From positions 1-33,151 of the forward strand of contig JADFPO010000010.1 of NCBI GenBank assembly GCA_022562295.1: a stretch of DNA of 33,151 nt, in the 5' to 3' direction. Source of the stretch: Gemmatimonadota bacterium. Lineage in GTDB: Bacteria > Gemmatimonadota > Gemmatimonadetes > Gemmatimonadales > GWC2-71-9. This document shows positions 14,550-29,115 of the stretch, piece after piece. Numbering within the stretch: the first letter of the stretch is position 1; each line of letters opens with the position of its first letter. Position numbers and translations under genes: made by a program. A model generated the notes under the pieces. It searched no databases and was not told the DNA's origin. It was given only the letters and a program-made list of their open reading frames with translations.

Positions 14550-15635
14550 TCAAGTCCTGACCCTTACCATCATTACGATGCCCGCCACCGCGAATATGAT
14601 GTTGGGCAGCCATGCTGCGAGCAGTGGAGGTAACAGGCCGCTGGATCCGATTCCCTGAGAAAGCTGCACCATCAAGAGAAATACGATCGTCGTCCCGAGC
14701 CCGATACCGATACCAAGGGCGCCACTAGTTCTCGGTGCAGAGACCGCGAGCGGCGCGCTGAATATGGCGACGACGAGGCAGGTAAAGGGTATCGCGATTT
14801 TGAGTTCCTGGGCGACGCGCAGGCGGCGGCCGTCGCCGCCAGACCGCTCCAGTGCGTCGATGTAGGAGCCCAGCTCTTCATACACCATCTCCTCCGGACG
14901 TTTGGGTTCGGAGAGGAGTGCCGACGGGGTTTCCGTGAAGTTTCGCATGTGAATCGAGTCGAACTCGAAGGCCAACTCGGAAGCCGAACCCGTAAGTATG
15001 CGCAGCCGTCCGTTCGTCATGGTCCATCGTGAAACCGAGTCGTCATACGTGCCGCGCGGGCTCTGCACTACGAGGGTCGGGTACTCGCCTCCTGTGCCCT
15101 TCCGTTCCATCTGCACGTTTCGCAGCAGACGTTGGCCCTCGTCCAGCGACCCGATGACGTACACCCAGCCCTCCTCAGCGCGATACACGAAGTTGAAGCG
15201 CCTCGAATCGGTGCGACGCTCACGCTCCCCGAGCAGTTCCGTTTGCTTGGTCGTTGCCGCGGGAGCGACTTCGCCCACGACCATGGCAAGTCCGGTCGCA
15301 ACCGCGGCTGCCAAGAGTATTGGTGTTACGAGCCGATGAAAGCTGGTACCGCACGCCTTGGCCGCAGCCAGTTCGAGATGCCTGCTGAACGCGCCCATTG
15401 TGAAGGCTGTGGCAAACAGCACCGCCGCCGGAAGAACGACGCGTAACGTCTCGGGAAAGCCGTAAACGTAGCTGAGCGCGATGTCGGCCGGGGGAATTCC
15501 CTGCGCCAGATAATCGTCGATCTTCTCGCTGATGTCGATGATGATGACGAAAAGAGGGAATCCGATGGCGGTCGCCGCGAAGATCTTGACCCACTCCCAC
15601 GCGAGATAGCGATCGAGAATGCCGCCCGGCTTCAT
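14550..15635 (-). CDS. lptG: LptF/LptG family LPS export permease (LptG-like)
   Basis: YjgP/YjgQ fold: GILDRYLAWEWVKIFAATAIGFPLFVIIIDISEKIDDYL..., C-terminal TM block; follows lptF with a 4-nt overlap. Confidence 0.88.
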   Translation of the reverse strand: MKPGGILDRYLAWEWVKIFAATAIGFPLFVIIIDISEKIDDYLAQGIPPADIALSYVYGFPETLRVVLPAAVLFATAFTMGAFSRHLELAAAKACGTSFHRLVTPILLAAAVATGLAMVVGEVAPAATTKQTELLGERERRTDSRRFNFVYRAEEGWVYVIGSLDEGQRLLRNVQMERKGTGGEYPTLVVQSPRGTYDDSVSRWTMTNGRLRILTGSASELAFEFDSIHMRNFTETPSALLSEPKRPEEMVYEELGSYIDALERSGGDGRRLRVAQELKIAIPFTCLVVAIFSAPLAVSAPRTSGALGIGIGLGTTIVFLLMVQLSQGIGSSGLLPPLLAAWLPNIIFAVAGIVMMVRVRT

Positions 15636-17149
15636 CCGGACGGCAACGGGGACCTGGACGTACTAACGGCTCTTGGGACCTTTGGTGTGCTGCCGAACCA
15701 GCTTGTCCAGCGCCGACTCCGTTGGGTTGCGCGGGTGCGAACATGGTACAGCCCCAGAAGGCCGATGGCGGTGAACACGAAATTGGGAGTCCACATGGCC
15801 CAAAAAGGACTCACAATGAGTTGGTTGCCGAGTGACTCGCCGCCGATTAACCCGACGTAGTAGATCGCAAACGCTCCAAGGCTCACGCTGATCACCAGGC
15901 CGATTCCCGCGCGCGGAAACAGAATAGCGATGGGTAACGCCACGATCACGAACACAATGGATGCGGCGGCGATCGCGTATTTCTTGTGGACTTCCACCAG
16001 ATAATTTGCGGCCCGTATCTCCGCGCTGCGCGCCCGATCGCGTAGGACCTTGGCCGCCGCGATTCGCGGAGGCGCCGCTCCTGTGGCGTAGGCTACGCGC
16101 CCAGGCTCGTTGAGGTGTTCGAACACCGCTTCCGTCCGGGGGTTTTGGGTTCGGCCGGTCTGGGCTTCGGCGGCGGGCACGAGCCAGTTCGCCATACTTC
16201 GCAGTGCTCGGCAATACCATTGACCTTGCAGGGCCGGCCCTACGGTGTCGACGGGCACCGACGCCAGACCCACCAGGCCGCGCAGACTGTTCAACTCGAT
16301 ACCGGCGGCTCGCCGCTCGGCGAAGTCTTGTTGCGTTCGGGCCGCGACAATCACCGAATCCATTTCGCAGACTCGCATCTCACGGTCGCCCTTGAACTGG
16401 TCGTTCACGCTTCGGCTGAAGTTGCCCCCGATACCCTCGACGCGGATCACTTTTTGGCGGAAATTCATTACCTGGAACTGCCGGCGATCGGTGCGGCTCG
16501 ACTCATGCATCATGCCGTCATACAGTGTGAGGTACAGGTCCGTTTGGGCGGAGTCGAAGGCCAGCCAGCCGCTGTCGGCGTAGATTGTGCGTCTTCTCGT
16601 TTGATTCGTAAGGTCGTAGATCGTAACATCCCGGAGAGCGTATGTGGCTTGGTCGATTTGGTTCGCTCGAAGGAAGAAGCGGTTCCGCTGCACCTCATTG
16701 ATGACCTGCTCTTCCAGAGCGAAGGTCGGCTTGGTGCGGTTGATGTCCGTTAATAGCGTGCGAAGGCGGTGATTCGACCGGGGAAGCACCTGGTCGCTGA
16801 ACAGGAACGCCACTGCCGTCATCACGAGCCCGGCCCCGAGCAACGGGCGCGCGAGCCGGCCCAAGGAAACACCTCCTGCTTGGAGCGCGGTGATTTCGTT
16901 CTCCGCCGCAAGCCGGCTCACGGCGTACAACACGGTGACCAGCACAGCCATGGGAAGGGTCATGGCAACTAGGAACGGCACCGACAGGGCGAAGACCTCG
17001 ACGATGACCATGACAGGCAGTCCCTTGCCCAGGAGATCAGGGAGACGCTTCGCAATCTGGTTCAACAGCAGAATGCTGGTGCACGCCGACATCGCGAACA
17101 CGAAAGGAACGAGGTGCAACTTGAGCAGATACTTGCTGATTATTGACAC
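15632..17149 (-). CDS. lptF: LptF/LptG family LPS export permease (LptF-like)
   Basis: MSIISKYLLKLHLVPFVFAMSACTSILLLNQIAKRLPDLLGKGLP..., ENEITALQAGGVSLGRLARPLLGAGL. GTG start at 17149. Confidence 0.88.
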   Translation of the reverse strand: MSIISKYLLKLHLVPFVFAMSACTSILLLNQIAKRLPDLLGKGLPVMVIVEVFALSVPFLVAMTLPMAVLVTVLYAVSRLAAENEITALQAGGVSLGRLARPLLGAGLVMTAVAFLFSDQVLPRSNHRLRTLLTDINRTKPTFALEEQVINEVQRNRFFLRANQIDQATYALRDVTIYDLTNQTRRRTIYADSGWLAFDSAQTDLYLTLYDGMMHESSRTDRRQFQVMNFRQKVIRVEGIGGNFSRSVNDQFKGDREMRVCEMDSVIVAARTQQDFAERRAAGIELNSLRGLVGLASVPVDTVGPALQGQWYCRALRSMANWLVPAAEAQTGRTQNPRTEAVFEHLNEPGRVAYATGAAPPRIAAAKVLRDRARSAEIRAANYLVEVHKKYAIAAASIVFVIVALPIAILFPRAGIGLVISVSLGAFAIYYVGLIGGESLGNQLIVSPFWAMWTPNFVFTAIGLLGLYHVRTRATQRSRRWTSWFGSTPKVPRAVSTSRSPLPSG

Positions 17150-17188: not shown

Positions 17189-20100
17189 ATGCCTGTGAGG
17201 CGCTCCGGCGCCGTGCCTTCTAAGATGTACCCCCGACGGTGGGGTAAGGTGTCCCGGCAGTCAATGTTGGTCGTCGGGGCGGCGCTCGCGTGCCCCGCGA
17301 TTGCGTCGGCCCAGGGGCCAGGTCCCGCAGTCCGTTTCTATCTCATCACTGACACACTACACCTGGACCCCCCGCCGGCGCTACGGGACGGTGGCCTCTG
17401 GGACCGGCTCACCAGTCCCCGAGAGGTCGCGAGGCGATGGGTGGCGGAAACGCTCCGCCTGGTCCAAGCGAATCGAGCCCGCCGCCGCGGCCGGCTCGCA
17501 CTGAACCGCCCTGTGGTGGCAGCCGGCATTCTGCCGCGTCGGCCTATCGCCCTCGACTCGGCCCCTCCCCCCGTTGCGAGGCAGGACCTGGGCGACCTAG
17601 CTCGGTACGCCGACCTCAACATCGAGCTCGACGCTCACCTCGAAACACGCCTCGACCGGCTGCGCAACTTGAACTGCACGGCCGCGGACATCTCGAATCC
17701 AGCCTCGGGTTGCCAGGGTGGTTTTCCGACGCCTGCTCTCGACCAACAATTCGCGCTGCGGGCGGGTGGGGTGATCGCCGATCGCCTCAACGTCAACGTG
17801 GACTTCGACAGCCAGCGCGAGTTCAGTTCCAACAACAGAATCAACGTGTGGTACCAGGGACTGGAGGATGACATCGTGCGGCGAGTGGAAGTCGGCAACC
17901 TGGACTTTCAACTCCCGTCCTCGCCGTTCATCAGGTCGGCCATCCCTGCACAGTCGTTCGGTATTCAGGCGGAGGCGCAGCTCGGTCCCGTCGAGCTGCG
18001 TTCGATCCTGGCGCAGCAAAAGGGTTCCTCGGTTAGGACCCGCATTTTCACGGTGGGTGACCGCACCACCCAGCGCGTGAGTCGTGAGTCGCGCGACGTG
18101 GAGTTCGAGGACAGCCGGTTCTTCTTCATCGTCGATCCGGCGACCCTCCCGGCGCAGCCGAACATCGACGTGTTGAACATCGTGCGTGATGCGTTGCCGC
18201 CCGAAGCCCAGCTGGCCCAGGTGCGCGTTTACCGGCTGCGGGCCCAAAGCGGTCAGGTGGGCATCAACCCGAGTCTTCAGGGCATCGAAGCCGTGGCGTT
18301 TCGCGATGACAGTCCGCAGCGCGTCGGCCCGTTTTTTTGGGATCTGCTCGTCGAAGGCCAGGACTACTACTTGGATCCGTCGGGCACTTGGTTCGGGCTG
18401 AGAAATCGGGTGGGTCTGAACGAGTTCTTGGCCGTCTCGTATGTCACCGTATCGGGGGACACGGTGGGGACGTTTCCGTCGGTGACCGGCCCGTCCGATA
18501 CGCTCCGACTGATACACGAACCCCGCCGGGGGACCGACGTACCGACGTTCGAGCACGAGATGCGGAATTTCTATCGCATCGGAGGGAACATCAGCCGAAA
18601 CTCCATCAATCTCTCGCTCGTCGTCAACGATTCCGAACGACCGGTCGATGGCATCGGTACGTACCTGGCGCGACTGGGGCTGGCCAACTCGACGGATCCA
18701 TCCCAGCTCGACGAATTCAATAGGGTATTTCCGCGTGAGCGCGATCCGAACGGCGGCCTCCCGCTCCGCGACCTCTTCGTCGTCTTCCCGAATCTCAAAC
18801 CGTTTGCCGACAGCGCGCGGTTACAGGATCGCGAGCGCAACGACTCCATCTACCGTACGCCGACCTACTTGCGCAACACGCAGGGTCCGGCGCCGCGCTT
18901 CAGGTTTCTCTGGGACTATGACGCGTCGGGCTCCGGCGACCGGGCTCGGCTCAGTTTGGGCGCGGTGCAGGTACGCAGTGGGAGTGAGCGGATAAGAATC
19001 GGGAACCGCGATCTGGTTCGCGGACGGGATTACGATATCTCGTACGACCTCGGCGTGATCACGTTCGTCAACCCCGACTCGCTCTTTCCCGGACCGACCG
19101 AGGTGCAGGTGCAATTCGAGCAAAACCAGTTGTTCGACATTGCGCCGAGCAGCGTGTTCGGTTTGCACGGCACCTACAACCTCGGGTCGCGAGGACGTGT
19201 CGATGCGGTCACGCTGTTTCAGCGGGAGCGAACCATCTTCACACGTCCGATCCTTGGCTTAGAGCCGCAGGCGATGTTCATCGGGAGCCTCAGCACGAAC
19301 CTTCGGTTCCGTCCCGACTATCTCACCCGCGCGCTCAACGCGCTTCCCCTGCTGGAAACCAACGTGCCGTCCATCCTCGAGGTGACGGCTGAACTTGCCG
19401 TGTCTCGTCCCAACCCGAATCAAGCGGGGGAAGCTTACATCGAGGAATTCGAAGGCCAGCCGTCGACCATCATCGGCATGGAGGAGCAATCGTTTCAGCT
19501 CGGCAGCCGTCCGACTTCGGGCATCGGCCTGCCGCCCAGTCACTTGTCTCCGGCAGGGGAGTTCGACGTCAACGATGCCGCTACGCTGGTGTGGCAAAAC
19601 GCGATAGAAATCGATGGCGGTCCGCTCGAGCTGAGTCCCGGAGAAATCGATTCGAGCATCGTGCTCACCGGTGCTTCGAGGCCGAAGGAGACATTGCTCT
19701 GGCTCACGCTCAAGCCGGACACCATTGGAGGTGCCCCCCACCCGGTCACCGGCGCCCCGAGATGGTTCCGGACGCCAACCCCAGGCCCGCGATGGCGCAG
19801 CATCACCCGGCCACTCGATCGATCCGGTCTTGGGATCGATCTGTCGCGCATTGAGTTTCTCGAGTTTTGGGCCTTGGAGGACCTTCGCGTCTCGACGCTG
19901 CGGCAGAAAACCATCTTGGTCTTGGATTTCGGCACAGTGCTGGAAGACGCCGTGGCGTTCGGGCCCGACTCGCTCGAGGTGATCCGCAACGACACGGTGT
20001 TTTCCGGGTTCCAAACCCTGGGAATGGGTGTACTCGACTCCGAGAAGGATCGCTTCACCAATTTGTTCAATGCTGCTGTCAACGACGTCGGCATTCACGG

Positions 20101-23100
20101 CGATCGGATTCCGACGATCTTCAACATCAACACCGGTGAAACACTGACGGATTTCCCGATGTGCGAGCGTGTGTTCACCGGAGTGACCATTCCGACGTTC
20201 CCGCTTGGCCACCTGGGGGCCCGTTGCACCCGCCGCAACGGCTTTGTCGACTCGGAGGACCTCAACGGCGACAACCGGCTGGATCGCGCGATCGGCGTAT
20301 TGCAAGAGGATGTCGTGCGGTACATCGTGCCGCTGGGAGATGCGCGGCTCGTCGTCCGGCGCGGTGAGATCCTGCGGGATATCGCGGGCGTTACGAGAAC
20401 GTGGCGGCTGTATCGGATTCCGTTTCGCCGCGACACGGTGCAGATCGGGGCGCCCAACCTCAGACGAACTCGTTCCTTGCGTATCACGATGGTCAGTTCT
20501 GACCAGCAGGCCGGCGAGCAAGAGGTCTCGGTGGCGTTGGCGAGGATGAGGTTGGTCGGAGCACCGTGGGTGAAGAGAGCCGAGACACCGATCGCGGGGT
20601 TGGGGGGGCTGCGCGGCGAACCCCATGGGGAGGTGATCGCGTCGGTCATTTCGACGGAAGACCGCGATCTGGGGTATACGTCTCCACCCGGGGTGATCGA
20701 TGAGGCGGCGCGGAGGGGAGCGACGTTTGAGTTTGGGTCCCAACAAATCAATGAGCGATCGCTCCGCCTGATCGCGCGTGATCTGCGGGTGGGCGAGCGC
20801 GCGGAGGCCCTGCTACGATTCGCCGGTGGGGCGGACAAGAATTTCCTCCAGTATCGAACACTGCGTGCGTGGGTGCGGGGTCGTGGGTCCGGTTGGGAGG
20901 CCGGCGATCTACAGTTCGCCATCAAGGTTGGGAGCGACGAAGACAATTTCTACATGTACCGCACCGATGCGAGCACGCTCAGCTGGGAGCCCGAAGTGGT
21001 GGTGGAACTCGACCGCTGGCTCACGTTGCGGGCGCAGGTCGAAGGCGCGTGGGTTCTCGGTGAAAGTCCGTCCGGATCGGCCGAGTGTGGCGGCGATTCT
21101 ACGGCGTTCGTCCGGTGCGACGGACCGTACCTGATACAGGTCAAGGATCCCGGCGTGCGCCCACCGAACCTGGCTCGCGTATCTGAGATCTCGGTGGCAA
21201 TGTTGCGCACGCAGGAATCCGTGTTCATTCCCGAAGCAGAGATGTGGGTGGACGATATCCGCTTGAGCGACGTGGTCGCTGATGCGGGCTTCGCGGGAAT
21301 GGTTGAGGTGCACCTTACGGCGGCCGACTTCGCGGAGGTGAACTTCTCGTTCATGAAGACCGACGACCAATTTCGCCAGATCGACGAAACGCCGGACTAC
21401 TTGGCCGATGCGCAGACGCAGATCGGGACATCGGTGGCCATCGACAAGCTACTGCCCGAATCGTGGGGGCTGAGCGTCCCGTTTACGGCGCAGTACCGGC
21501 GGCTGAGCACCGACCCATTCTTCGTTCCGCGAACAGATGTTCGAGCGAAAGCGCTCGCGAATTTGCGCAAACCGGCGGCTTCGGCGACCTCGTATCAGCT
21601 GGCTTTGCGCCGATCACGACGCGGCGAATCTTTCGCGGAGCGGTTACTGCTGGATCCGGTATCGTTGGTCGGTATCAGGGAAGATGCTGAAAGTATCTCC
21701 GAGTTGAGCACGGCCCGCACGCGGAATCGTCAATTGCGCGTCGCCTATGACAACCGGCCCAACCCACGCACGATACAGGGTGCACCAAGCTTCCTGGTGA
21801 ACTTGGTGGAGAGAATGCCCGCATGGCTGCGCGAGAGCGAATTCGGCAGAGCGCTCCGCTCGTCGCGCCTTCGCTGGAACCCCTATCAGATTCGGTTCGG
21901 TTCCGAATTGATCGATAACGAAACCGACCGATCCACATTTCGCATTCCCGTGGCGCTCCCCGAAGACCTTCTTCTCGTTCCGCTCCGCAGCATTGTGCAC
22001 ACTTGGCGCAACAGCGTAACTGCCGACCTGCGGCCGTTCTCGTCGCTCGGGCTTCGCGTCGACTACGCCGTCATCCGCGACCTGCAGGACTATGGTGATT
22101 CGACGCAAGTGGGCAGACTGGTCGGCGAACAGAGAACGACGCTGTGGGGTAAGAACATCGGGTTCGAGCGGGATCGCAGCCTTTCGACGCGTCTCAACGC
22201 GGCGCCGGTGATCAATAGCTGGCTGCGTCCCCGTTTCAACCTCGCCAGCACGTTCATTTTTCACCGCGATCCGAATGGGCGAAGAGCCGTGGAAATCGAC
22301 ACCGACTCGGTGGTCACGTTCAAGGCGCCAGAGGCCATCTCGAATTTCCGGACGCGGCTCGTCGGATCGACGTTCGATCTGAGCCGACTCGCCGAAGCGG
22401 TCGCGGGAGACATGAGCTTCCTCGCCAGGGCCGCGCGTGGCATTTTCCCCGCAGACATATCGTTTCAGAAAGACCGGCGCTCCAACTTCGACCGCATTCC
22501 CTTCTCCGCCGATCTCCGCTACCGGCTCGGGATCGGGGCCATCGAAGAGTTTCGAGAGCAAGAGGGTGAGCTTGCCACGTCCGCGGTCGAAAGTGACGCG
22601 TGGACAGTCTCGGGTGGATCGCAGCTGCCATTTGGGTTCGGGGCGCGGGTAAATTTCCGGCGTACCGTCTCCAGCACTTGGGCGCGGCGGGGGGGGGCGC
22701 AAACCGAGATCAGGCAGCGATCTCGTGAGTGGCCGTCGGGGATTCTGTCGTGGGTCTACACCCCACCAGCTCCGGTGCGGAGCGTGATCTCCAGTGTGAC
22801 GGCCCAAACCCGCTACCGGCGGACCGAGGCATCGAGCTTCCAGCCCGGCGTGCTTGGTGTGCCGGGGCAGGGCGCACAGCCTGACGGGAGCAGCGCGACG
22901 GGGGTGTTTACCGAGAGCAACTCCACGAGCGTGACGCCGACGGTTACCTTGACTTGGGTTGCCGGAGTGGTGACGACCGGTCGGGTAACTCGATTGCAGA
23001 GTGAGGTGTTGACCTCGGGCAACATCACGGTAAGCGACGAAACGCGGTGGGGCGGCACGACGAGCTTCTCGTTTCGGGCACCTCGATACTTGATACGATT

Positions 23101-23371
23101 GCCGAACGAGGTCCGTACATCGCTGAGCGTCACCTCGACCAATGCCAACGTCTGTCTGCAGCGGACGGAGAGTCTCGTGTGTTCGTCCGTGTCGGAGAGC
23201 CGCCGCCGTCAAATCGACATTCGGCTGGATACCGGGTTTCCGCCGAGCATTCGCGGAGGAGCGAGCTTTAGTTACCTGTTGCGAGAGGAGCTGCACACGT
23301 CGAGCAAGGTCTCACAGATGGTATTTACCGTATTCATGGATATCAATTTCTTGGCCAGCCAGGTGCGATGA
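17189..23371 (+). CDS. sprA: SprA-like giant outer-membrane protein (cell-surface protein SprA / T9SS translocon family), 2060 aa
   Basis: Signal peptide ...ACPAIASA|QGPGP; SprA-type blocks RINVWYQGLEDDIVRRVEVGNLDFQLPSS, FGIQAEAQLGPVELRSILAQQKG, NPNQAGEAYIEEFEGQPSTI, RTDASTLSWEPEVVVELDRWL; long beta-strand C-terminus. Family call is from memory of the family. Confidence 0.8.
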   Translation: MPVRRSGAVPSKMYPRRWGKVSRQSMLVVGAALACPAIASAQGPGPAVRFYLITDTLHLDPPPALRDGGLWDRLTSPREVARRWVAETLRLVQANRARRRGRLALNRPVVAAGILPRRPIALDSAPPPVARQDLGDLARYADLNIELDAHLETRLDRLRNLNCTAADISNPASGCQGGFPTPALDQQFALRAGGVIADRLNVNVDFDSQREFSSNNRINVWYQGLEDDIVRRVEVGNLDFQLPSSPFIRSAIPAQSFGIQAEAQLGPVELRSILAQQKGSSVRTRIFTVGDRTTQRVSRESRDVEFEDSRFFFIVDPATLPAQPNIDVLNIVRDALPPEAQLAQVRVYRLRAQSGQVGINPSLQGIEAVAFRDDSPQRVGPFFWDLLVEGQDYYLDPSGTWFGLRNRVGLNEFLAVSYVTVSGDTVGTFPSVTGPSDTLRLIHEPRRGTDVPTFEHEMRNFYRIGGNISRNSINLSLVVNDSERPVDGIGTYLARLGLANSTDPSQLDEFNRVFPRERDPNGGLPLRDLFVVFPNLKPFADSARLQDRERNDSIYRTPTYLRNTQGPAPRFRFLWDYDASGSGDRARLSLGAVQVRSGSERIRIGNRDLVRGRDYDISYDLGVITFVNPDSLFPGPTEVQVQFEQNQLFDIAPSSVFGLHGTYNLGSRGRVDAVTLFQRERTIFTRPILGLEPQAMFIGSLSTNLRFRPDYLTRALNALPLLETNVPSILEVTAELAVSRPNPNQAGEAYIEEFEGQPSTIIGMEEQSFQLGSRPTSGIGLPPSHLSPAGEFDVNDAATLVWQNAIEIDGGPLELSPGEIDSSIVLTGASRPKETLLWLTLKPDTIGGAPHPVTGAPRWFRTPTPGPRWRSITRPLDRSGLGIDLSRIEFLEFWALEDLRVSTLRQKTILVLDFGTVLEDAVAFGPDSLEVIRNDTVFSGFQTLGMGVLDSEKDRFTNLFNAAVNDVGIHGDRIPTIFNINTGETLTDFPMCERVFTGVTIPTFPLGHLGARCTRRNGFVDSEDLNGDNRLDRAIGVLQEDVVRYIVPLGDARLVVRRGEILRDIAGVTRTWRLYRIPFRRDTVQIGAPNLRRTRSLRITMVSSDQQAGEQEVSVALARMRLVGAPWVKRAETPIAGLGGLRGEPHGEVIASVISTEDRDLGYTSPPGVIDEAARRGATFEFGSQQINERSLRLIARDLRVGERAEALLRFAGGADKNFLQYRTLRAWVRGRGSGWEAGDLQFAIKVGSDEDNFYMYRTDASTLSWEPEVVVELDRWLTLRAQVEGAWVLGESPSGSAECGGDSTAFVRCDGPYLIQVKDPGVRPPNLARVSEISVAMLRTQESVFIPEAEMWVDDIRLSDVVADAGFAGMVEVHLTAADFAEVNFSFMKTDDQFRQIDETPDYLADAQTQIGTSVAIDKLLPESWGLSVPFTAQYRRLSTDPFFVPRTDVRAKALANLRKPAASATSYQLALRRSRRGESFAERLLLDPVSLVGIREDAESISELSTARTRNRQLRVAYDNRPNPRTIQGAPSFLVNLVERMPAWLRESEFGRALRSSRLRWNPYQIRFGSELIDNETDRSTFRIPVALPEDLLLVPLRSIVHTWRNSVTADLRPFSSLGLRVDYAVIRDLQDYGDSTQVGRLVGEQRTTLWGKNIGFERDRSLSTRLNAAPVINSWLRPRFNLASTFIFHRDPNGRRAVEIDTDSVVTFKAPEAISNFRTRLVGSTFDLSRLAEAVAGDMSFLARAARGIFPADISFQKDRRSNFDRIPFSADLRYRLGIGAIEEFREQEGELATSAVESDAWTVSGGSQLPFGFGARVNFRRTVSSTWARRGGAQTEIRQRSREWPSGILSWVYTPPAPVRSVISSVTAQTRYRRTEASSFQPGVLGVPGQGAQPDGSSATGVFTESNSTSVTPTVTLTWVAGVVTTGRVTRLQSEVLTSGNITVSDETRWGGTTSFSFRAPRYLIRLPNEVRTSLSVTSTNANVCLQRTESLVCSSVSESRRRQIDIRLDTGFPPSIRGGASFSYLLREELHTSSKVSQMVFTVFMDINFLASQVR

Positions 23372-24260
23372 TGCGGATCCTTTCCGTTGCGGCGACGGTG
23401 TTCCTCTTGCTTGGATGTAGTCGTGGAGGAGAGGCAACTTTTCAGTTCGATGGCGAGGCCGCGCTTTCCTACGCCCAAGCGCAGATGGATTTCGGTGAGC
23501 GCATTCCCAATACGGAGGGGCACCGTCTCACGGGAGACTGGATACTCGAGCAGCTGGAGTCTCGCGCGGATTCTGTCGAGGTGCAGAGCTTCACGCACGT
23601 GACGGCCGATGGCGATACGCTGCGGCTGCGCAACTTCATCGGTCGATTTCGACCGGACGCCACCGAACGCATTCTCTTTCTCGCTCATTGGGATACACGC
23701 CCCCAGGCCGAGAAGGAATCGAATATGGCCAAGCGCCGGCTCCCCACGCCCGGAGCGAACGATGGCGCGTCCGGGGTGGCGATCCTGCTCGGTATAGCGG
23801 ATGAGCTCGAGCGGGAACCGCCGGCGTTCGGCGTGGACCTGTTGTTCGTCGATGGGGAAGACTACGGCACTTTTCTGATACGGACGTATTTCTCGGGTCG
23901 CGCTATTTCGCGGACCATCTACCCGAGGGATACTCGCCTCTGTTCGCCGTGTTGTTCGACATGGTGGGCGACGCGGACCTCAGAATCCCGCGCGAAGGCT
24001 ACTCCGTCAACGGGGCCCCCGAGGTGGTCGACCGAGTGTGGCGGAAGGCCATGGATCTCGGTTTCGGACACGTCTTCCGCTCAGAGATCGGCACTTGGGT
24101 ACGCGACGACCATATCGTGTTGCAGGAGGCGGGCATCCGCGCCATCAACGTCATCGACTTCACATATCCGTACCATCACACCACCGACGACACGATGGAC
24201 AAACTGAGCGCCCGCAGTCTCGCCATCGTCGGCAGCGTCGCTGTCGCACTCGTTCGCTGA
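23368..24260 (+). CDS. M28-family glutaminyl-peptide cyclotransferase-like lipoprotein, interrupted by an apparent -1 frameshift near 23871-23875
   Basis: Lipobox FLLLGCSRGG. Frame 1: ILFLAHWDTRPQAE...TPGANDGASGVAILLGIADELE...VDLLFVDGEDYGTF. Continues in frame 3: SDTDVFLGSRYFADHLPEGYSPLFAVLFDMVGDADLRIPREGYSVNGAPEVVDRVWRKAMDLG...YPYHHTTDDTMDKLSARSLAIVG. Confidence 0.85.
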
Positions 24261-24336: not shown

Positions 24337-24951
24337 ATGGCTACGAAAGACGATCGCCGGGCCGCGCTGCTACTCCTGGTAGTCGCGCTGGCCGGCGGTT
24401 TGGTCCGACTCGGCGGACTCGCCGTCGACGCTCCCGGCGCGATCGGATACCAATCGGGAAGCGAGCGCCGACCGGGGCGCGACTCCGTCGATGCCGCGTC
24501 CGCGCGGATGTCCCGTCCGCTTGGCATGGGAGAACGCATCGATCTCGACCGGGCGGAGGCCTCCGACCTGGCCCGGCTACCTCGAATTGGGCCCGCTCTG
24601 GCCGCGCGGATCGTCAACGATCGCAAGCTCAAGGGACCGTTCGGATCGCTGCAGGAGGTTGCCAGGGTGCCTGGGGTGGGGCCGGCGGTGCTCGAGGCCA
24701 TTCGAGTGCACAGCACGTTCTCAGGCGTAGCCCGTCGCGAGCCGGCCCCGGCGAGTGGAAAGGTGAGGCTGAACACAGCGCCGGAGAGCCTGTTGCAGCA
24801 GCTTCCGGGGATCGGGCCGATCAAGGCGCGGGCGATCGTCGACGATCGGCGTCGCCACGGCCGCTACCGGACGATCGATGATTTGGTGCGGGTTCCGGGT
24901 ATCGGAACCGCGACCGTCGAGCGCCTGAGAGACCTCGTTATCGTTCGTTGA
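24337..24951 (+). CDS. ComEA-like protein with two helix-hairpin-helix units
   Basis: N-terminal TM, then LARLPRIGPALAARIVNDRKLKGPFGSLQEVARVPGVGPAVLEAI and LNTAPESLLQQLPGIGPIKARAIVDDRRRHGRYRTIDDLVRVPGIGTATVERL. Confidence 0.88.
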   Translation: MATKDDRRAALLLLVVALAGGLVRLGGLAVDAPGAIGYQSGSERRPGRDSVDAASARMSRPLGMGERIDLDRAEASDLARLPRIGPALAARIVNDRKLKGPFGSLQEVARVPGVGPAVLEAIRVHSTFSGVARREPAPASGKVRLNTAPESLLQQLPGIGPIKARAIVDDRRRHGRYRTIDDLVRVPGIGTATVERLRDLVIVR

Positions 24952-25050: not shown

Positions 25051-26754
25051 ATGGCGACGGCCGCTGCCAGCTCTCATCGCATGGGCGATCTACTCATCGC
25101 CGAACGCCTGATCACACAAGACCAACTCGATCAGGCGTTGTCCGAGCAACGCGGCTCGGGCATGCGTCTGGGGTATGTCTTGGTGAAAATGGGTCTCGTG
25201 CGGGAACTCGAGATTACCAAGATGCTGGCCCGCCAGTATCGGGTACCGGCGGTGGATCTGTCGCAGTTCGACGTGGACGAGAAGATCGTCAAGTTGATCC
25301 CCTCAGAGGTTGCGCTGAAGCACACCGCACTTCCGCTGAAACGCGAGGGGCGCACGCTGACGGTGGCCATGGTCGAGCCTGCCAACGCTCAGATTCTGGA
25401 CGATCTCAAATTTATTACGCGCTGCGACATTTTCCCGGTGATCGCGGGCGAATACACGTTGCGCACCGCAATCGAGAAGTATTACGAGCAAACGGACGCG
25501 CAACTCGAGAACCTTCTCCAGGACATGGAGGAGCTGGATATCGAGGTCGTCGAAGAGAAAGATGACGATGAAGACGTCGGCAACATCGCGGACGACGCGC
25601 CGGTCGTGAAGCTCATCAACGGGCTCTTGACCGACGCGGTGCTACGTGGCGCGAGTGACATTCACATCGAGCCGTTTGAGCACGAGCTTCGGGTGCGGTA
25701 CCGGGTCGACGGAGCGTTGCAAGTGGTGATGAAGCCGCCGCTGAAGTTGAAGGCGGCATTGACGAGCCGGGTCAAGATCATGTCGAACCTCAACATCGCG
25801 GAGCGGCGGGTGCCGCAAGACGGCCGGATCAAGATCAAAGTCAAAAAGCGGGTGATCGATTTCCGCGTGTCTACACTGCCGTGCATCTTTGGCGAAAAAA
25901 TCGTCATGCGGATTCTGGACAAGAGCAACTTGACTCTGGATTTGCAGACGTTCGGCTTCGAGCCCAAAGCCGAGAAGGATCTCATGGACGCCATCTCGAA
26001 TCCTTACGGCATGGTGCTCGTGACGGGGCCGACCGGTTCGGGCAAGACAACCACGTTGTATTCGGCGCTCTCGCAAATCAACAACGAAGACGTCAACATC
26101 ATGACCGCGGAAGATCCCGTGGAGTACAACCTTGACGGCATCAACCAAGTCATGGTACGGAACGATGTCGGGCTGACGTTTGCGGCGGCGCTCAAGGCGT
26201 TCTTACGGCAAGATCCGAATATCATTATGGTCGGGGAGATCCGCGACCTCGAAACGGGCAGCATCGCCATCAAGGCCGCGCTCACCGGACACCTCGTGCT
26301 CTCCACGCTGCACACCAATGACGCGCCGTCGACGGTCACGCGCATGCTCGACATGGGTCTCGCGGCGTTCAACGTGGCGAGTGCCGTAAATCTCATCGTG
26401 GCTCAGCGGTTGATTCGGCGAATCTGCGCCGACTGCAAAGAGGAGTATTCATATTCCGAAGACGAACTGGCCCCTCTCGGATTGAGTCCGAAAGAACTCG
26501 ATGAGATCACGTTCCACAAGGGGGCCGGATGCGACACGTGCGCCGGATCCGGTTACCGCGGCCGCGCCGGGCTGTACGAGGTCATGACCGTCTCCCCGGA
26601 GCTGCGGCGTATGATTCTCGCAGGAGCATCGACGGCAGATATGCAGAAAACCGCGATCGAAGAGGGGATGCTTACGCTCCGGATGGACGGCATAATGAAG
26701 CTCCGAAAAGGCGTCACGACACCGGAGGAAGTGATCAAGGAGACGGCTGGGTAA
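25051..26754 (+). CDS. pilB: Type IV pilus assembly ATPase PilB (GspE/PilB) with N-terminal MshEN-like domain
   Basis: GPTGSGKTTTLYSALSQIN, DPNIIMVGEIRDLETGSIAIKAALTGHLVLSTLHTNDAPST, CADC...CDTC zinc motif; N-terminal MGDLLIAERLITQDQLDQALSEQ...RLGYVLVKMGLV. Confidence 0.95.
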   Translation: MATAAASSHRMGDLLIAERLITQDQLDQALSEQRGSGMRLGYVLVKMGLVRELEITKMLARQYRVPAVDLSQFDVDEKIVKLIPSEVALKHTALPLKREGRTLTVAMVEPANAQILDDLKFITRCDIFPVIAGEYTLRTAIEKYYEQTDAQLENLLQDMEELDIEVVEEKDDDEDVGNIADDAPVVKLINGLLTDAVLRGASDIHIEPFEHELRVRYRVDGALQVVMKPPLKLKAALTSRVKIMSNLNIAERRVPQDGRIKIKVKKRVIDFRVSTLPCIFGEKIVMRILDKSNLTLDLQTFGFEPKAEKDLMDAISNPYGMVLVTGPTGSGKTTTLYSALSQINNEDVNIMTAEDPVEYNLDGINQVMVRNDVGLTFAAALKAFLRQDPNIIMVGEIRDLETGSIAIKAALTGHLVLSTLHTNDAPSTVTRMLDMGLAAFNVASAVNLIVAQRLIRRICADCKEEYSYSEDELAPLGLSPKELDEITFHKGAGCDTCAGSGYRGRAGLYEVMTVSPELRRMILAGASTADMQKTAIEEGMLTLRMDGIMKLRKGVTTPEEVIKETAG

Positions 26755-26758
26755 TGGA

Positions 26759-27901
26759 ATGACTGAAGCTGCTACGGCGCCCGCGGCGGAGACCAAACTG
26801 AACCTGCGGTCGCTCCTCGACGAGATGATAAGTCGAGGCGCGTCCGATTTACACATCACCGCCGGCTGCTGCCCCAAACTGCGTATCGACGGGGTGATTG
26901 GCAACGCCAAATACGAGGCGGTTCTCTCTCCAAAAGAAACGCTCCAGATCGCCTATTCGGTGCTGACCGAGAACCAGAAAAAGACCTTCGAGATGGAGGA
27001 CGAGCTGGACTTCGCGTTCGGCATTCAGGATCTAGCTCGGTTCCGTGGGAATTGCTTCAAGCAACGGGGCTGTGTGTCCATCGTGATTCGACAGATTCCC
27101 ATCGAGATCAAGACCTTCGACGATTTGGGGCTGCCGCCGATACTGGCAGAGTTCACGGAACGCCCCAAAGGGCTCGTGCTGGTGACGGGGCCGACCGGGT
27201 CGGGCAAGTCGACTACCTTGGCGGCGATGATAGACCGCATCAATCGCAGAACCCACGGACACATCATCACCATCGAAGACCCGATCGAATTCGTGCACCG
27301 GCACCAATCGTGCATCATCAACCAGCGCGAAGTCGGCACGGACACGAAGTCGTTTTCCAGCGCCTTGAAATACGCGCTGCGGCAAGACCCCGATGTGGTG
27401 CTCATCGGCGAGATGCGGGACCTGGAGACCATCGCGGCCGCGATCACGATCGCCGAAACCGGACACCTGGCGTTTGCGACGCTCCACACGAACTCGGCCG
27501 CCGAGACGATCAACCGCGTGATCGATGTTTTCCCGTCCCATCAGCAGTCGCAAATTCGTGCTCAACTCGCGTTCGTGCTGGAGGGAGTCGTGACCCAGCA
27601 GCTGCTCTCGAAGGCCTCTGGATCGGGCCGTGCCATGGCATCGGAAATCATGGTGTGTACGCCGGCGATTCGCGCGCTCATCAGGGAGGACAAGATCCAT
27701 CAGATCATGTCGCAGATGCAGGCGGGCAAAAAATTCGGCATGCAAACCTTGGCGGACTCGCTGCATACCTTGTACATGCGGCGAGAAATTACTCTCGAGG
27801 AAGCGCTGCGGGTGGCGCCAGATCAGAACGAGCTTCTGCGCATGGTCGGAGAGCCCGTGCCCGGAGATGCGGCTGGGAAACGGGTCGCCGGCCGGCGCTA
27901 A
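26759..27901 (+). CDS. pilT: Twitching motility ATPase PilT
   Basis: SRGASDLHITAG, GPTGSGKSTTLAAMIDRIN, DPDVVLIGEMRDLETIAAAITIAETGHLAFATLHTNSAAETINRVIDVFP, AIRALIREDKIHQI. Confidence 0.95.
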   Translation: MTEAATAPAAETKLNLRSLLDEMISRGASDLHITAGCCPKLRIDGVIGNAKYEAVLSPKETLQIAYSVLTENQKKTFEMEDELDFAFGIQDLARFRGNCFKQRGCVSIVIRQIPIEIKTFDDLGLPPILAEFTERPKGLVLVTGPTGSGKSTTLAAMIDRINRRTHGHIITIEDPIEFVHRHQSCIINQREVGTDTKSFSSALKYALRQDPDVVLIGEMRDLETIAAAITIAETGHLAFATLHTNSAAETINRVIDVFPSHQQSQIRAQLAFVLEGVVTQQLLSKASGSGRAMASEIMVCTPAIRALIREDKIHQIMSQMQAGKKFGMQTLADSLHTLYMRREITLEEALRVAPDQNELLRMVGEPVPGDAAGKRVAGRR

Positions 27902-27921
27902 TGAGATAGGAGGACGGAGTC

Positions 27922-29115
27922 ATGCCCCTGTACGAGTACACAGCCGAGACGGCAGCGGGTGAAGAGCAGACTGCGACTATAGATCTGCCGTCCAAGGATG
28001 ATGTCATCGCCCACCTTCGTCGCAAGCGAATGAAGGTGGTGCGGGTGCGGGAAGCAAAAAAGAAGAAGCCGAAGGGCAAGGCGCCCATGAGGGACGTCGT
28101 GATCTTCACCCGGCAGTTCGCGACGATGATCAACTCCGGCCTGCCACTCGTGCAGTCGCTCACCATTCTAGGCAAGCAAACGGATAACAAAGTCCTAGCG
28201 GAAACGACGATGTTGGTTGTGTATGACGTGGAGAGCGGTAACACACTCGCCGACTCGTTGGCCAAGCACCCCAACGTGTTCAACGATCTCTTCGTCAACA
28301 TGGTCGCGGCGGGTGAGGCGGGCGGTATTCTCGATACCATCCTCAACCGGCTCGCCGTGTTCATGGAGAAGAACGACGCGATCATCAGAAAAGTGAAAGG
28401 AGCGATGATCTATCCGGTCGTGATTTTCTCGGTCGCCGGCATTGCGATTGTCATCCTGTTGATCTTCGTCATCCCCACTTTCGAAGTGATGTTTGCATCA
28501 GTGGATATGGAGTTACCGCTTCCCACGAAGATCGTGATCTGGTTGAGCGACACCCTCGTTGGATACTGGTGGGCAATCGGAGGGGCCGCGATCGGCGCGT
28601 TCTACGCCATCACGAACTGGTACAAAACCAGCACCGGTCAGTTGGTCCTCGACTCGCTCATGCTGAAGATTCCTGTCCTCGGCGACATGCTGCTCAAGTC
28701 CGCCGTATCGCGTTTCAGTCGTACACTGGGAACGCTCCTCTCTTCGGGTGTCTCGATTCTGGAAGGATTGGAAATCACCGCACGCACCTCGGGCAATCGC
28801 GTCATTCACGACGCCATCATGGAGTCCCGCACCTCGATCGCGGGCGGGGAAACCATCGCGACACCGCTCACGGAATCGGGGGTGTTTCCCCCGATGGTGA
28901 CCTCGATGATCGCCGTGGGCGAGGCGACCGGCGGATTGGACGCCATGCTGACAAAAATCGCCGATTTCTACGATGACGAGGTCGATACGGCCGTCGGCTC
29001 GCTGTTGGCCCTCCTGGAACCCGTCATGATCGTCGTGCTCGGTGTGGTGGTCGGTGGGATGATCGTCGCCATGTACCTGCCGATCTTCAACATGATCGAA
29101 TCGGTCCAGGGATAA
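27922..29115 (+). CDS. pilC: Type II secretion/type IV pilus inner-membrane platform protein PilC
   Basis: MPLYEYTAETAAGE..., FTRQFATMINSGLPLVQSLTIL, MVAAGEAGGILDTILNRLA, RFSRTLGTLLSSGVSILEGLEI, IAVGEATGGLDAML. Confidence 0.95.
   Translation: MPLYEYTAETAAGEEQTATIDLPSKDDVIAHLRRKRMKVVRVREAKKKKPKGKAPMRDVVIFTRQFATMINSGLPLVQSLTILGKQTDNKVLAETTMLVVYDVESGNTLADSLAKHPNVFNDLFVNMVAAGEAGGILDTILNRLAVFMEKNDAIIRKVKGAMIYPVVIFSVAGIAIVILLIFVIPTFEVMFASVDMELPLPTKIVIWLSDTLVGYWWAIGGAAIGAFYAITNWYKTSTGQLVLDSLMLKIPVLGDMLLKSAVSRFSRTLGTLLSSGVSILEGLEITARTSGNRVIHDAIMESRTSIAGGETIATPLTESGVFPPMVTSMIAVGEATGGLDAMLTKIADFYDDEVDTAVGSLLALLEPVMIVVLGVVVGGMIVAMYLPIFNMIESVQG

What the first reader, a model, noticed from the sequence alone, without database searches (positions are those of the whole stretch)
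17189..23371. Intact 2060-aa SprA-like T9SS translocon homolog in a likely non-Bacteroidota genome
The ORF carries SprA-type blocks (RINVWYQGLEDDIVRRVEVGNLDFQLPSSPFIRSAIPAQSFGIQAEAQLGPVELRSILAQQKGSS; GEAYIEEFEGQPSTI) and an extended beta-rich C-terminus. SprA/Sov is the giant outer-membrane pore of the type IX secretion system, best characterised in Bacteroidota. No PorK/L/M/N/T/U/V genes are visible here. It may be the pore of a divergent T9SS encoded elsewhere or a repurposed stand-alone export pore.
Basis: partly seen in the sequence, partly recalled or inferred. Interest (0 to 1): 0.75.

Follow-up and report, generated by a model that had tools for sequence, protein, structure and literature searches.

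The report
SprA secretion pore in Gemmatimonadota
This gene encodes the giant outer-membrane protein-export pore (SprA) best known from Bacteroidota, here in the phylum Gemmatimonadota, where it is inherited from ancestor to descendant with its partner PorV and a few tagged cargo proteins but, in the window's own class, without the usual sortase and without a motor that known models can detect.

Summary
In detail: window 17189-23371 (+) is an intact 2060-aa SprA/Sov (NCBIfam TIGR04189, 537 bits, cut-off 200; PDB SprA 6h3i, E 8e-36). The host is a Gemmatimonadota MAG. The gene is not a stray: 106 of 150 sampled Gemmatimonadota genomes carry SprA. It sits at a locus conserved even in a second class (lptGF / sprA / [glutaminyl cyclase] / comEA / pilB), and its tree follows host families. 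It is not stand-alone. A PorV-family gene lies elsewhere in the same genome, next to era, exactly where genomes of the other class have era-porU-porV. PorU, the C25 sortase, is missing there and in every other family sampled. SprA, PorV and T9SS-type C-terminal-domain (CTD) proteins co-occur strongly (PorV 94/106 vs 3/44; CTD 97/106 vs 8/44). In eight relatives the CTD protein is a tiny signal peptide plus a lone CTD, mostly beside selB. GldL, GldM and GldN were not detected in any of 150 genomes, but those searches had no positive control. Best reading: the translocon of a reduced, sortase-less type IX system. T9SS in Gemmatimonadetes has been mentioned before as possible; the reduced architecture appears new.

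The parts
17189..23371 (+). sprA/sov: 2060-aa T9SS outer-membrane translocon homologue
   Evidence: family models and PDB SprA; phylum-wide orthologues, synteny, tree
17189..17311 (+). Putative signal peptide of SprA (residues 1-41, ...CPAIASA), cleavage predicted before Q42
   Evidence: Sequence; crude signal-peptide scan. Inferred, not a trained predictor
23368..24207 (+). M28-family gene of the bacterial glutaminyl-cyclase type, overlapping the sprA stop by 4 bp. The open frame carries only the N-terminal ~168 residues of the family; a probable lipobox (LLGC) is present
   Evidence: PDB glutamine cyclotransferases 6qro 1.6e-35, 3gux 1.6e-37
23877..24257 (+). Rest of the glutaminyl-cyclase homology, in another reading frame (frameshift in this copy; sequencing error or pseudogene not resolved)
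   Evidence: relatives L002, L005 and G013 read through in one frame
15632..17149 (-). LptF-type LPS export permease, divergent from sprA (39-bp gap); conserved neighbour
14550..15635 (-). LptG-type LPS export permease; conserved neighbour
24337..24951 (+). ComEA-type helix-hairpin-helix protein; conserved downstream neighbour
25051..29115 (+). pilB (25051-26754), pilT family (26759-27901), pilC (27922-29115): type IV pilus genes, conserved neighbours, not T9SS parts

Best explanation
The gene encodes the outer-membrane translocon (SprA/Sov) of a reduced type IX secretion system that is ancestral in Gemmatimonadota. Proposed working: Sec exports a cargo with a signal peptide and a C-terminal Ig-like CTD; it folds in the periplasm, passes through the SprA barrel, and is received at SprA's lateral gate by PorV, which binds the CTD. 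In the class of this genome the sortase PorU has been lost from the ancestral era-porU-porV operon, so cargo is probably neither CTD-cleaved nor attached by sortase but stays bound to PorV or leaves the cell with its CTD on. Cargo is reduced to one or a few proteins: a lone-CTD miniprotein in many relatives, and giant CTD proteins each paired with their own PorV-like gene in others. Shown here: SprA identity, PorV-family genes, PorU present only in the other class at the syntenic site, and SprA/PorV/CTD co-occurrence. Inferred: all transport steps, the fate of the CTD and the energy source.
For: SprA models and PDB hits. Own PorV-family gene G000:C18:57405-58277, 118.6 bits over cut-off 90, with F. 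johnsoniae PorV 6h3i_F as its best PDB hit (E 0.0021, weak). era-PorU(C25)-PorV in f9 (L027-L030), era then PorU in L031 and PorU-PorV in L032 where the fetched stretch ends, against era directly followed by PorV in own L039 and in L056, L057, L058, L065, L066, L069. PorV (E<=1e-20) in 94/106 SprA+ vs 3/44 SprA- genomes; CTD in 97/106 vs 8/44, including one own match at 1.3e-5. In genus g31 the genome without SprA (G057) also lacks strong PorV and CTD, while its four siblings have all three (two of their CTD matches weak, 1e-4 range). Lone-CTD protein in eight genomes. SprA synteny and a tree that follows host families.
Against: The own genome's single CTD-like match (1.3e-5) was not located, because the hit list was cut, so its architecture is unknown. 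Mini-CTDs score below the TIGR04183 cut-off and resemble FlgD Ig domains too. No GldL, GldM or GldN hit over cut-off in any genome, not even in f9, which has PorU and 11-33 CTD proteins, so the energy source is unknown. The co-occurrence counts are not corrected for phylogeny. The own genome is 94.6% complete in 210 contigs.
Confidence: 0.62

Rival explanations
1. A complete canonical T9SS is present, with GldL/M/K/N and perhaps a PorU substitute too divergent for the Bacteroidota-trained models.
For: f9 has PorU and 11-33 CTD proteins, a functional-looking system, yet also no GldL/M/N hit, so the models may simply be blind in this phylum. The GldL, GldM (TIGR03517) and GldN searches rang in no control genome.
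Against: SprA, PorV, PorU and CTD models from the same libraries do find their targets here. Gene order places PorV directly after era where PorU would stand, so PorU at least is missing rather than unseen.
Confidence: 0.22
2. SprA is a repurposed pore that exports something unrelated to CTD cargo, for example a lipoprotein, glycan-linked or pilus-linked substrate, given its lpt and pil neighbours.
For: It is genomically tied to lptGF and comEA-pilBTC, not to por genes. Nine SprA+ genomes have no CTD match at 1e-3.
Against: Strong co-occurrence with PorV and CTD proteins, including losses inside genera. From general knowledge, lpt and pil systems work in many bacteria that have no SprA.
Confidence: 0.12
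3. Contamination of the MAG by a Bacteroidota contig, or a recent horizontal transfer.
For: Fragmented MAG (210 contigs, contamination 2.84%).
Against: The region around sprA is syntenic with other Gemmatimonadota; the SprA tree follows host families; the nearest relatives are all Gemmatimonadota.
Confidence: 0.01

Closest known systems
SprA/Sov, translocon of the Bacteroidota T9SS (F. johnsoniae SprA, PDB 6h3i/8gl6; P. gingivalis Sov)
   Same: Member by sequence over most of its length; a PorV-family partner and CTD-type cargo are in the phylum
   Different: 2060 aa against 2403 aa; different gene neighbourhood (lptGF/comEA/pilB); no PorU in the class; no GldL/M/N found
PorA-PorV-Sov complex of P. 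gingivalis (PMC8754138, PMC7712824) and Fjoh_0547, a 112-aa CTD protein of F. johnsoniae (described in PMC7712824)
   Same: A small CTD protein that stays with PorV-Sov is the closest precedent for the lone-CTD protein
   Different: PorA has an N-terminal FimH-like domain (246 aa); the mini-CTD proteins have essentially only the CTD. Both PorA and Fjoh_0547 reach the outside in translocon mutants, a warning against assuming SprA dependence
PorU C25 sortase with PorV (attachment complex)
   Same: f9 genomes keep era-porU-porV with an intact Peptidase_C25 domain
   Different: Absent in the window's class at the same site
Bacteroidota M28 glutaminyl cyclases (PDB 6qro, 3gux) and the Bacteroidetes Q-rule (PMC5837995)
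   Same: A glutaminyl-cyclase gene overlaps the sprA stop; signal peptidase sites in this phylum often expose Gln
   Different: PMC5837995 describes the Q-rule as Bacteroidetes-specific and does not mention Gemmatimonadetes; the window's own copy is frameshifted

Membership tests
SprA/Sov translocon family (TIGR04189) | Score above the curated cut-off and collinear homology to F. johnsoniae SprA | tested here: met
   537 bits vs 200; PDB 6h3i
SprA/Sov translocon family (TIGR04189) | Giant ~36-strand outer-membrane barrel | tested here: inconclusive
   C-terminal-half model best matches SprA structures at mean pLDDT 51; N-terminal-half model unusable; strand count not established
Type IX secretion system | PorV partner | tested here: met
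   NF033709 over cut-off in the own genome and 93/150 genomes; SprA binding itself not testable
Type IX secretion system | CTD-bearing cargo (TIGR04183 or similar) | tested here: inconclusive
   Phylum: met with the custom profile in 97/106 SprA+ genomes. Own genome: no TIGR04183 hit, one custom-profile match 1.3e-5, not located
Type IX secretion system | PorU C25 sortase | tested here: not met
   No hit in the own genome; full-length only in the six f9 genomes; absent from the era-porV site
Type IX secretion system | GldL/GldM (PorL/PorM) motor | tested here: inconclusive
   0/150 for TIGR03513 and TIGR03517, no PF12081 match over cut-off; no positive control available
Type IX secretion system | GldK/GldN (PorK/PorN) ring | tested here: inconclusive
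   GldN 0/150, no positive control; GldK not tested
Type IX secretion system | SprE/PorW, PorT, PorP, PorZ, PorQ, Plug | not tested
Type IX secretion system | SprA-dependent secretion of cargo | not testable with these tools
   Needs a mutant and a secretome

The most novel reading that the evidence does not exclude
Most of a bacterial phylum runs a minimal type IX system, SprA plus PorV, with no sortase and no GldLM motor, dedicated to a lone-CTD miniprotein or a few giant CTD proteins with private PorVs; the machine would have to be powered in some way other than GldLM, or by cargo folding and binding to PorV.
Probability: 0.3. Interest if true: 0.78.

Novelty: new variant of a known kind. 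Interest (0 to 1): 0.58.

Why it matters
If SprA and PorV work without PorU and without GldLM, the phylum offers a natural minimal T9SS in which to ask what the pore alone can do, what powers export, and what a CTD does when it is not cleaved. The era-(porU)-porV comparison is a clean evolutionary record of sortase loss. It would also suggest that T9SS predates the split of Gemmatimonadota from Bacteroidota rather than being a Bacteroidota speciality; a 2016 survey found it only in Bacteroidetes (PMC4793230).

Tried and rejected
AlphaFold on two halves with a 7-row alignment: N-terminal half unusable (pLDDT 33; its fold search gave nothing significant). SprA on plasmids: no match. GldL, GldM, GldN searches empty with no control genome that rings, so recorded as 'not detected', not 'absent'. 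The ~1320-1470-aa CTD protein beside PorV2 was first suspected to be a divergent PorU; Pfam finds no C25 domain, so rejected. That giant protein as the own genome's cargo: no hit in G000. Contamination or transfer rejected by synteny and tree. Papers: no dedicated study of T9SS in Gemmatimonadota found in the held library, only one passing mention.

Full report
Observation. The ORF at 17189-23371 (+) is intact, 2060 aa. It passes the SprA equivalog model by a wide margin (TIGR04189, E 1.2e-160, 536.8 bits, cut-off 200) and Pfam SprA_N. Its only PDB relatives are F. johnsoniae SprA chains (E 8e-36, three collinear stretches); a profile of nine Gemmatimonadota SprAs reaches 4.6e-89, with one stretch covering chain residues 401-1896. 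The C-terminal-half model, although only moderately confident (mean pLDDT 51, strongest in the last ~350 residues), has the four SprA structures as its top four PDB matches (E 4e-17 to 9e-13), ahead of ordinary TonB-dependent barrels (1e-4). The N-terminal-half model was too poor to use. A 36-strand barrel was therefore not demonstrated.

Host. The seven nearest public loci are all Gemmatimonadetes/Gemmatimonadota MAGs. The window lies on contig C103 of a 3.79-Mb, 94.6% complete assembly, with a single SprA. One relative MAG (KW1-S21_193) shows two SprA contigs, perhaps strain mixture.

Distribution and ancestry. SprA is in 106 of 150 sampled genomes of the phylum, at the same place: lptG-lptF divergent upstream, comEA downstream, and pilB after it wherever the stretch reaches that far. 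This holds in families f1, f2, f4, f5 and f8, and lptF and comEA flank sprA in f9, a different class of the phylum. The protein tree groups by host family. The gene is thus vertically inherited and old in this phylum, not a curiosity of one genome. T9SS in Gemmatimonadetes has been named as possible in a 2024 introduction (PMC11285876), while a 2016 survey found T9SS only in Bacteroidetes (PMC4793230).

Partners elsewhere in the genome. The own genome has three PorV-family hits, one over cut-off (G000:C18:57405-58277, 118.6 bits); that protein's best PDB match is F. johnsoniae PorV, weakly (E 0.0021). It lies directly after era and before a conserved ~280-aa outer-membrane-like protein. In f9 the same locus reads era-PorU-PorV-p316, with an intact C25 peptidase domain in PorU (Pfam E 2e-78). 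In own L039 and in L056, L057, L058, L065, L066 and L069 PorV follows era with no PorU between (the era match in L056 is partial). Full-length PorU occurs only in the six f9 genomes. The simplest reading is loss of PorU in the larger class.

Cargo. TIGR04183 finds 11-33 CTD proteins per f9 genome, at most 5 in other genomes and usually 1 or 2 where there are any, and none in the own genome. A profile built from Gemmatimonadota CTDs finds matches (E<=1e-3) in 97 of 106 SprA+ genomes and 8 of 44 SprA- genomes, including one in the own genome at 1.3e-5, whose place was not printed. Three SprA- genomes with strong PorV (G040, G096, G134) also have CTD matches and may simply lack the sprA contig. 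Two cargo types were seen. First, a 142-218-aa ORF with a signal peptide and little else but a CTD (YPNPFNPET...), in seven f5 genomes and one f1 genome, mostly beside selB. Second, a 1270-1470-aa protein ending in a CTD, directly upstream of a second PorV-family gene and usually downstream of a TonB-receptor-like gene (L041, L046, L068, L090; also L042). The CTD, PorV and SprA counts come from the same 150 genomes and are not corrected for phylogeny. Inside genus g31, though, the one SprA-less genome (G057) also lacks strong PorV and CTD, and in g29 the SprA-less G071 lacks both while G025 has all three.

Motor. GldL, GldM (two models) and GldN gave nothing over cut-off in 150 genomes. No genome in which these families are known could be used as a control, so this is 'not detected'. 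That f9, with a seemingly full cargo set and PorU, is also negative warns that the models may miss divergent motors. GldK, SprE, PorT, PorP and Plug were not tested.

Mechanism. By analogy with SprA-PorV in Bacteroidota (established knowledge; 8gl6 is a RemA-CTD substrate-bound SprA complex), a Sec-exported CTD protein would pass through SprA and be handed to PorV. Without PorU the CTD would stay on. P. gingivalis offers a precedent: PorV and PorA, a small CTD protein, are the most abundant partners of Sov (PMC8754138). A caution comes from the same literature: PorA and the 112-aa Fjoh_0547 reach the outside even in translocon mutants (PMC7712824).

Glutaminyl cyclase. The gene overlapping the sprA stop by 4 bp belongs to the M28 glutaminyl-cyclase type and is conserved after sprA in f1, part of f2 and f8. 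The window's copy is frameshifted near 23870-23900; relatives L002, L005 and G013 read through. Signal peptidase sites of SprA, PorV, p280 and the mini-CTD proteins in this phylum mostly expose Gln, resembling the Bacteroidetes Q-rule (PMC5837995). The link to secretion is suggestive only.

Verdict. A genuine SprA and a new member of a known family, within what looks like a reduced, sortase-less variant of T9SS across Gemmatimonadota. Novelty lies in the architecture, not in the pore.

Noticed in passing
window 17189-17314; L039, L040, L056, L057, L065, L066, L069, L081-L088: Signal peptidase I sites in this phylum very often read AxA|Q (SprA, PorV, p280, all eight mini-CTD proteins, several TonB receptors), like the Q-rule described as Bacteroidetes-specific; crude scan by motif, no trained predictor.
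   Followed up: partly
window 23368-24257: Glutaminyl-cyclase (M28) gene coupled to the sprA stop is frameshifted in the window; intact in relatives L002, L005 and G013.
   Followed up: partly
L041:2810-8053, L042:2192-7346, L046:2090-7044, L068:8316-13547, L090:2510-8036: Giant CTD protein (1270-1470 aa, no Pfam domain above its cut-off where scanned) directly followed by its own PorV-family gene, usually after a TonB-receptor-like gene; in f1 a GWxTD-domain protein follows. Most f9 genomes have about a dozen PorV-family genes each, several beside ~1100-aa CTD proteins.
   Followed up: partly
L081:4115-4642, L082:4729-5256, L083:4707-5309, L084:4469-4912, L085:4501-5007, L086:4368-4796, L087:4463-5119, L088:509-1129: Lone-CTD miniprotein with signal peptide; a selB-like gene is the next gene in six of these loci, including the f1 genome L086; function unknown.
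   Followed up: partly
L039:8547-9389; L040:8317-9267; L065:3384-4214: Conserved ~280-316-aa probable outer-membrane protein after PorV, only a weak sub-threshold DUF5683 match; candidate extra component.
   Followed up: no
L055:6633-9943 (own genome, contig C4): A 784-aa protein with a sub-threshold Big_1 Ig-like match overlaps a weak PorV-family gene by 4 bp; a possible second cargo/PorV pair in the own genome.
   Followed up: no
L003, L004: The MAG KW1-S21_193 carries two different SprA contigs, perhaps strain mixture.
   Followed up: no
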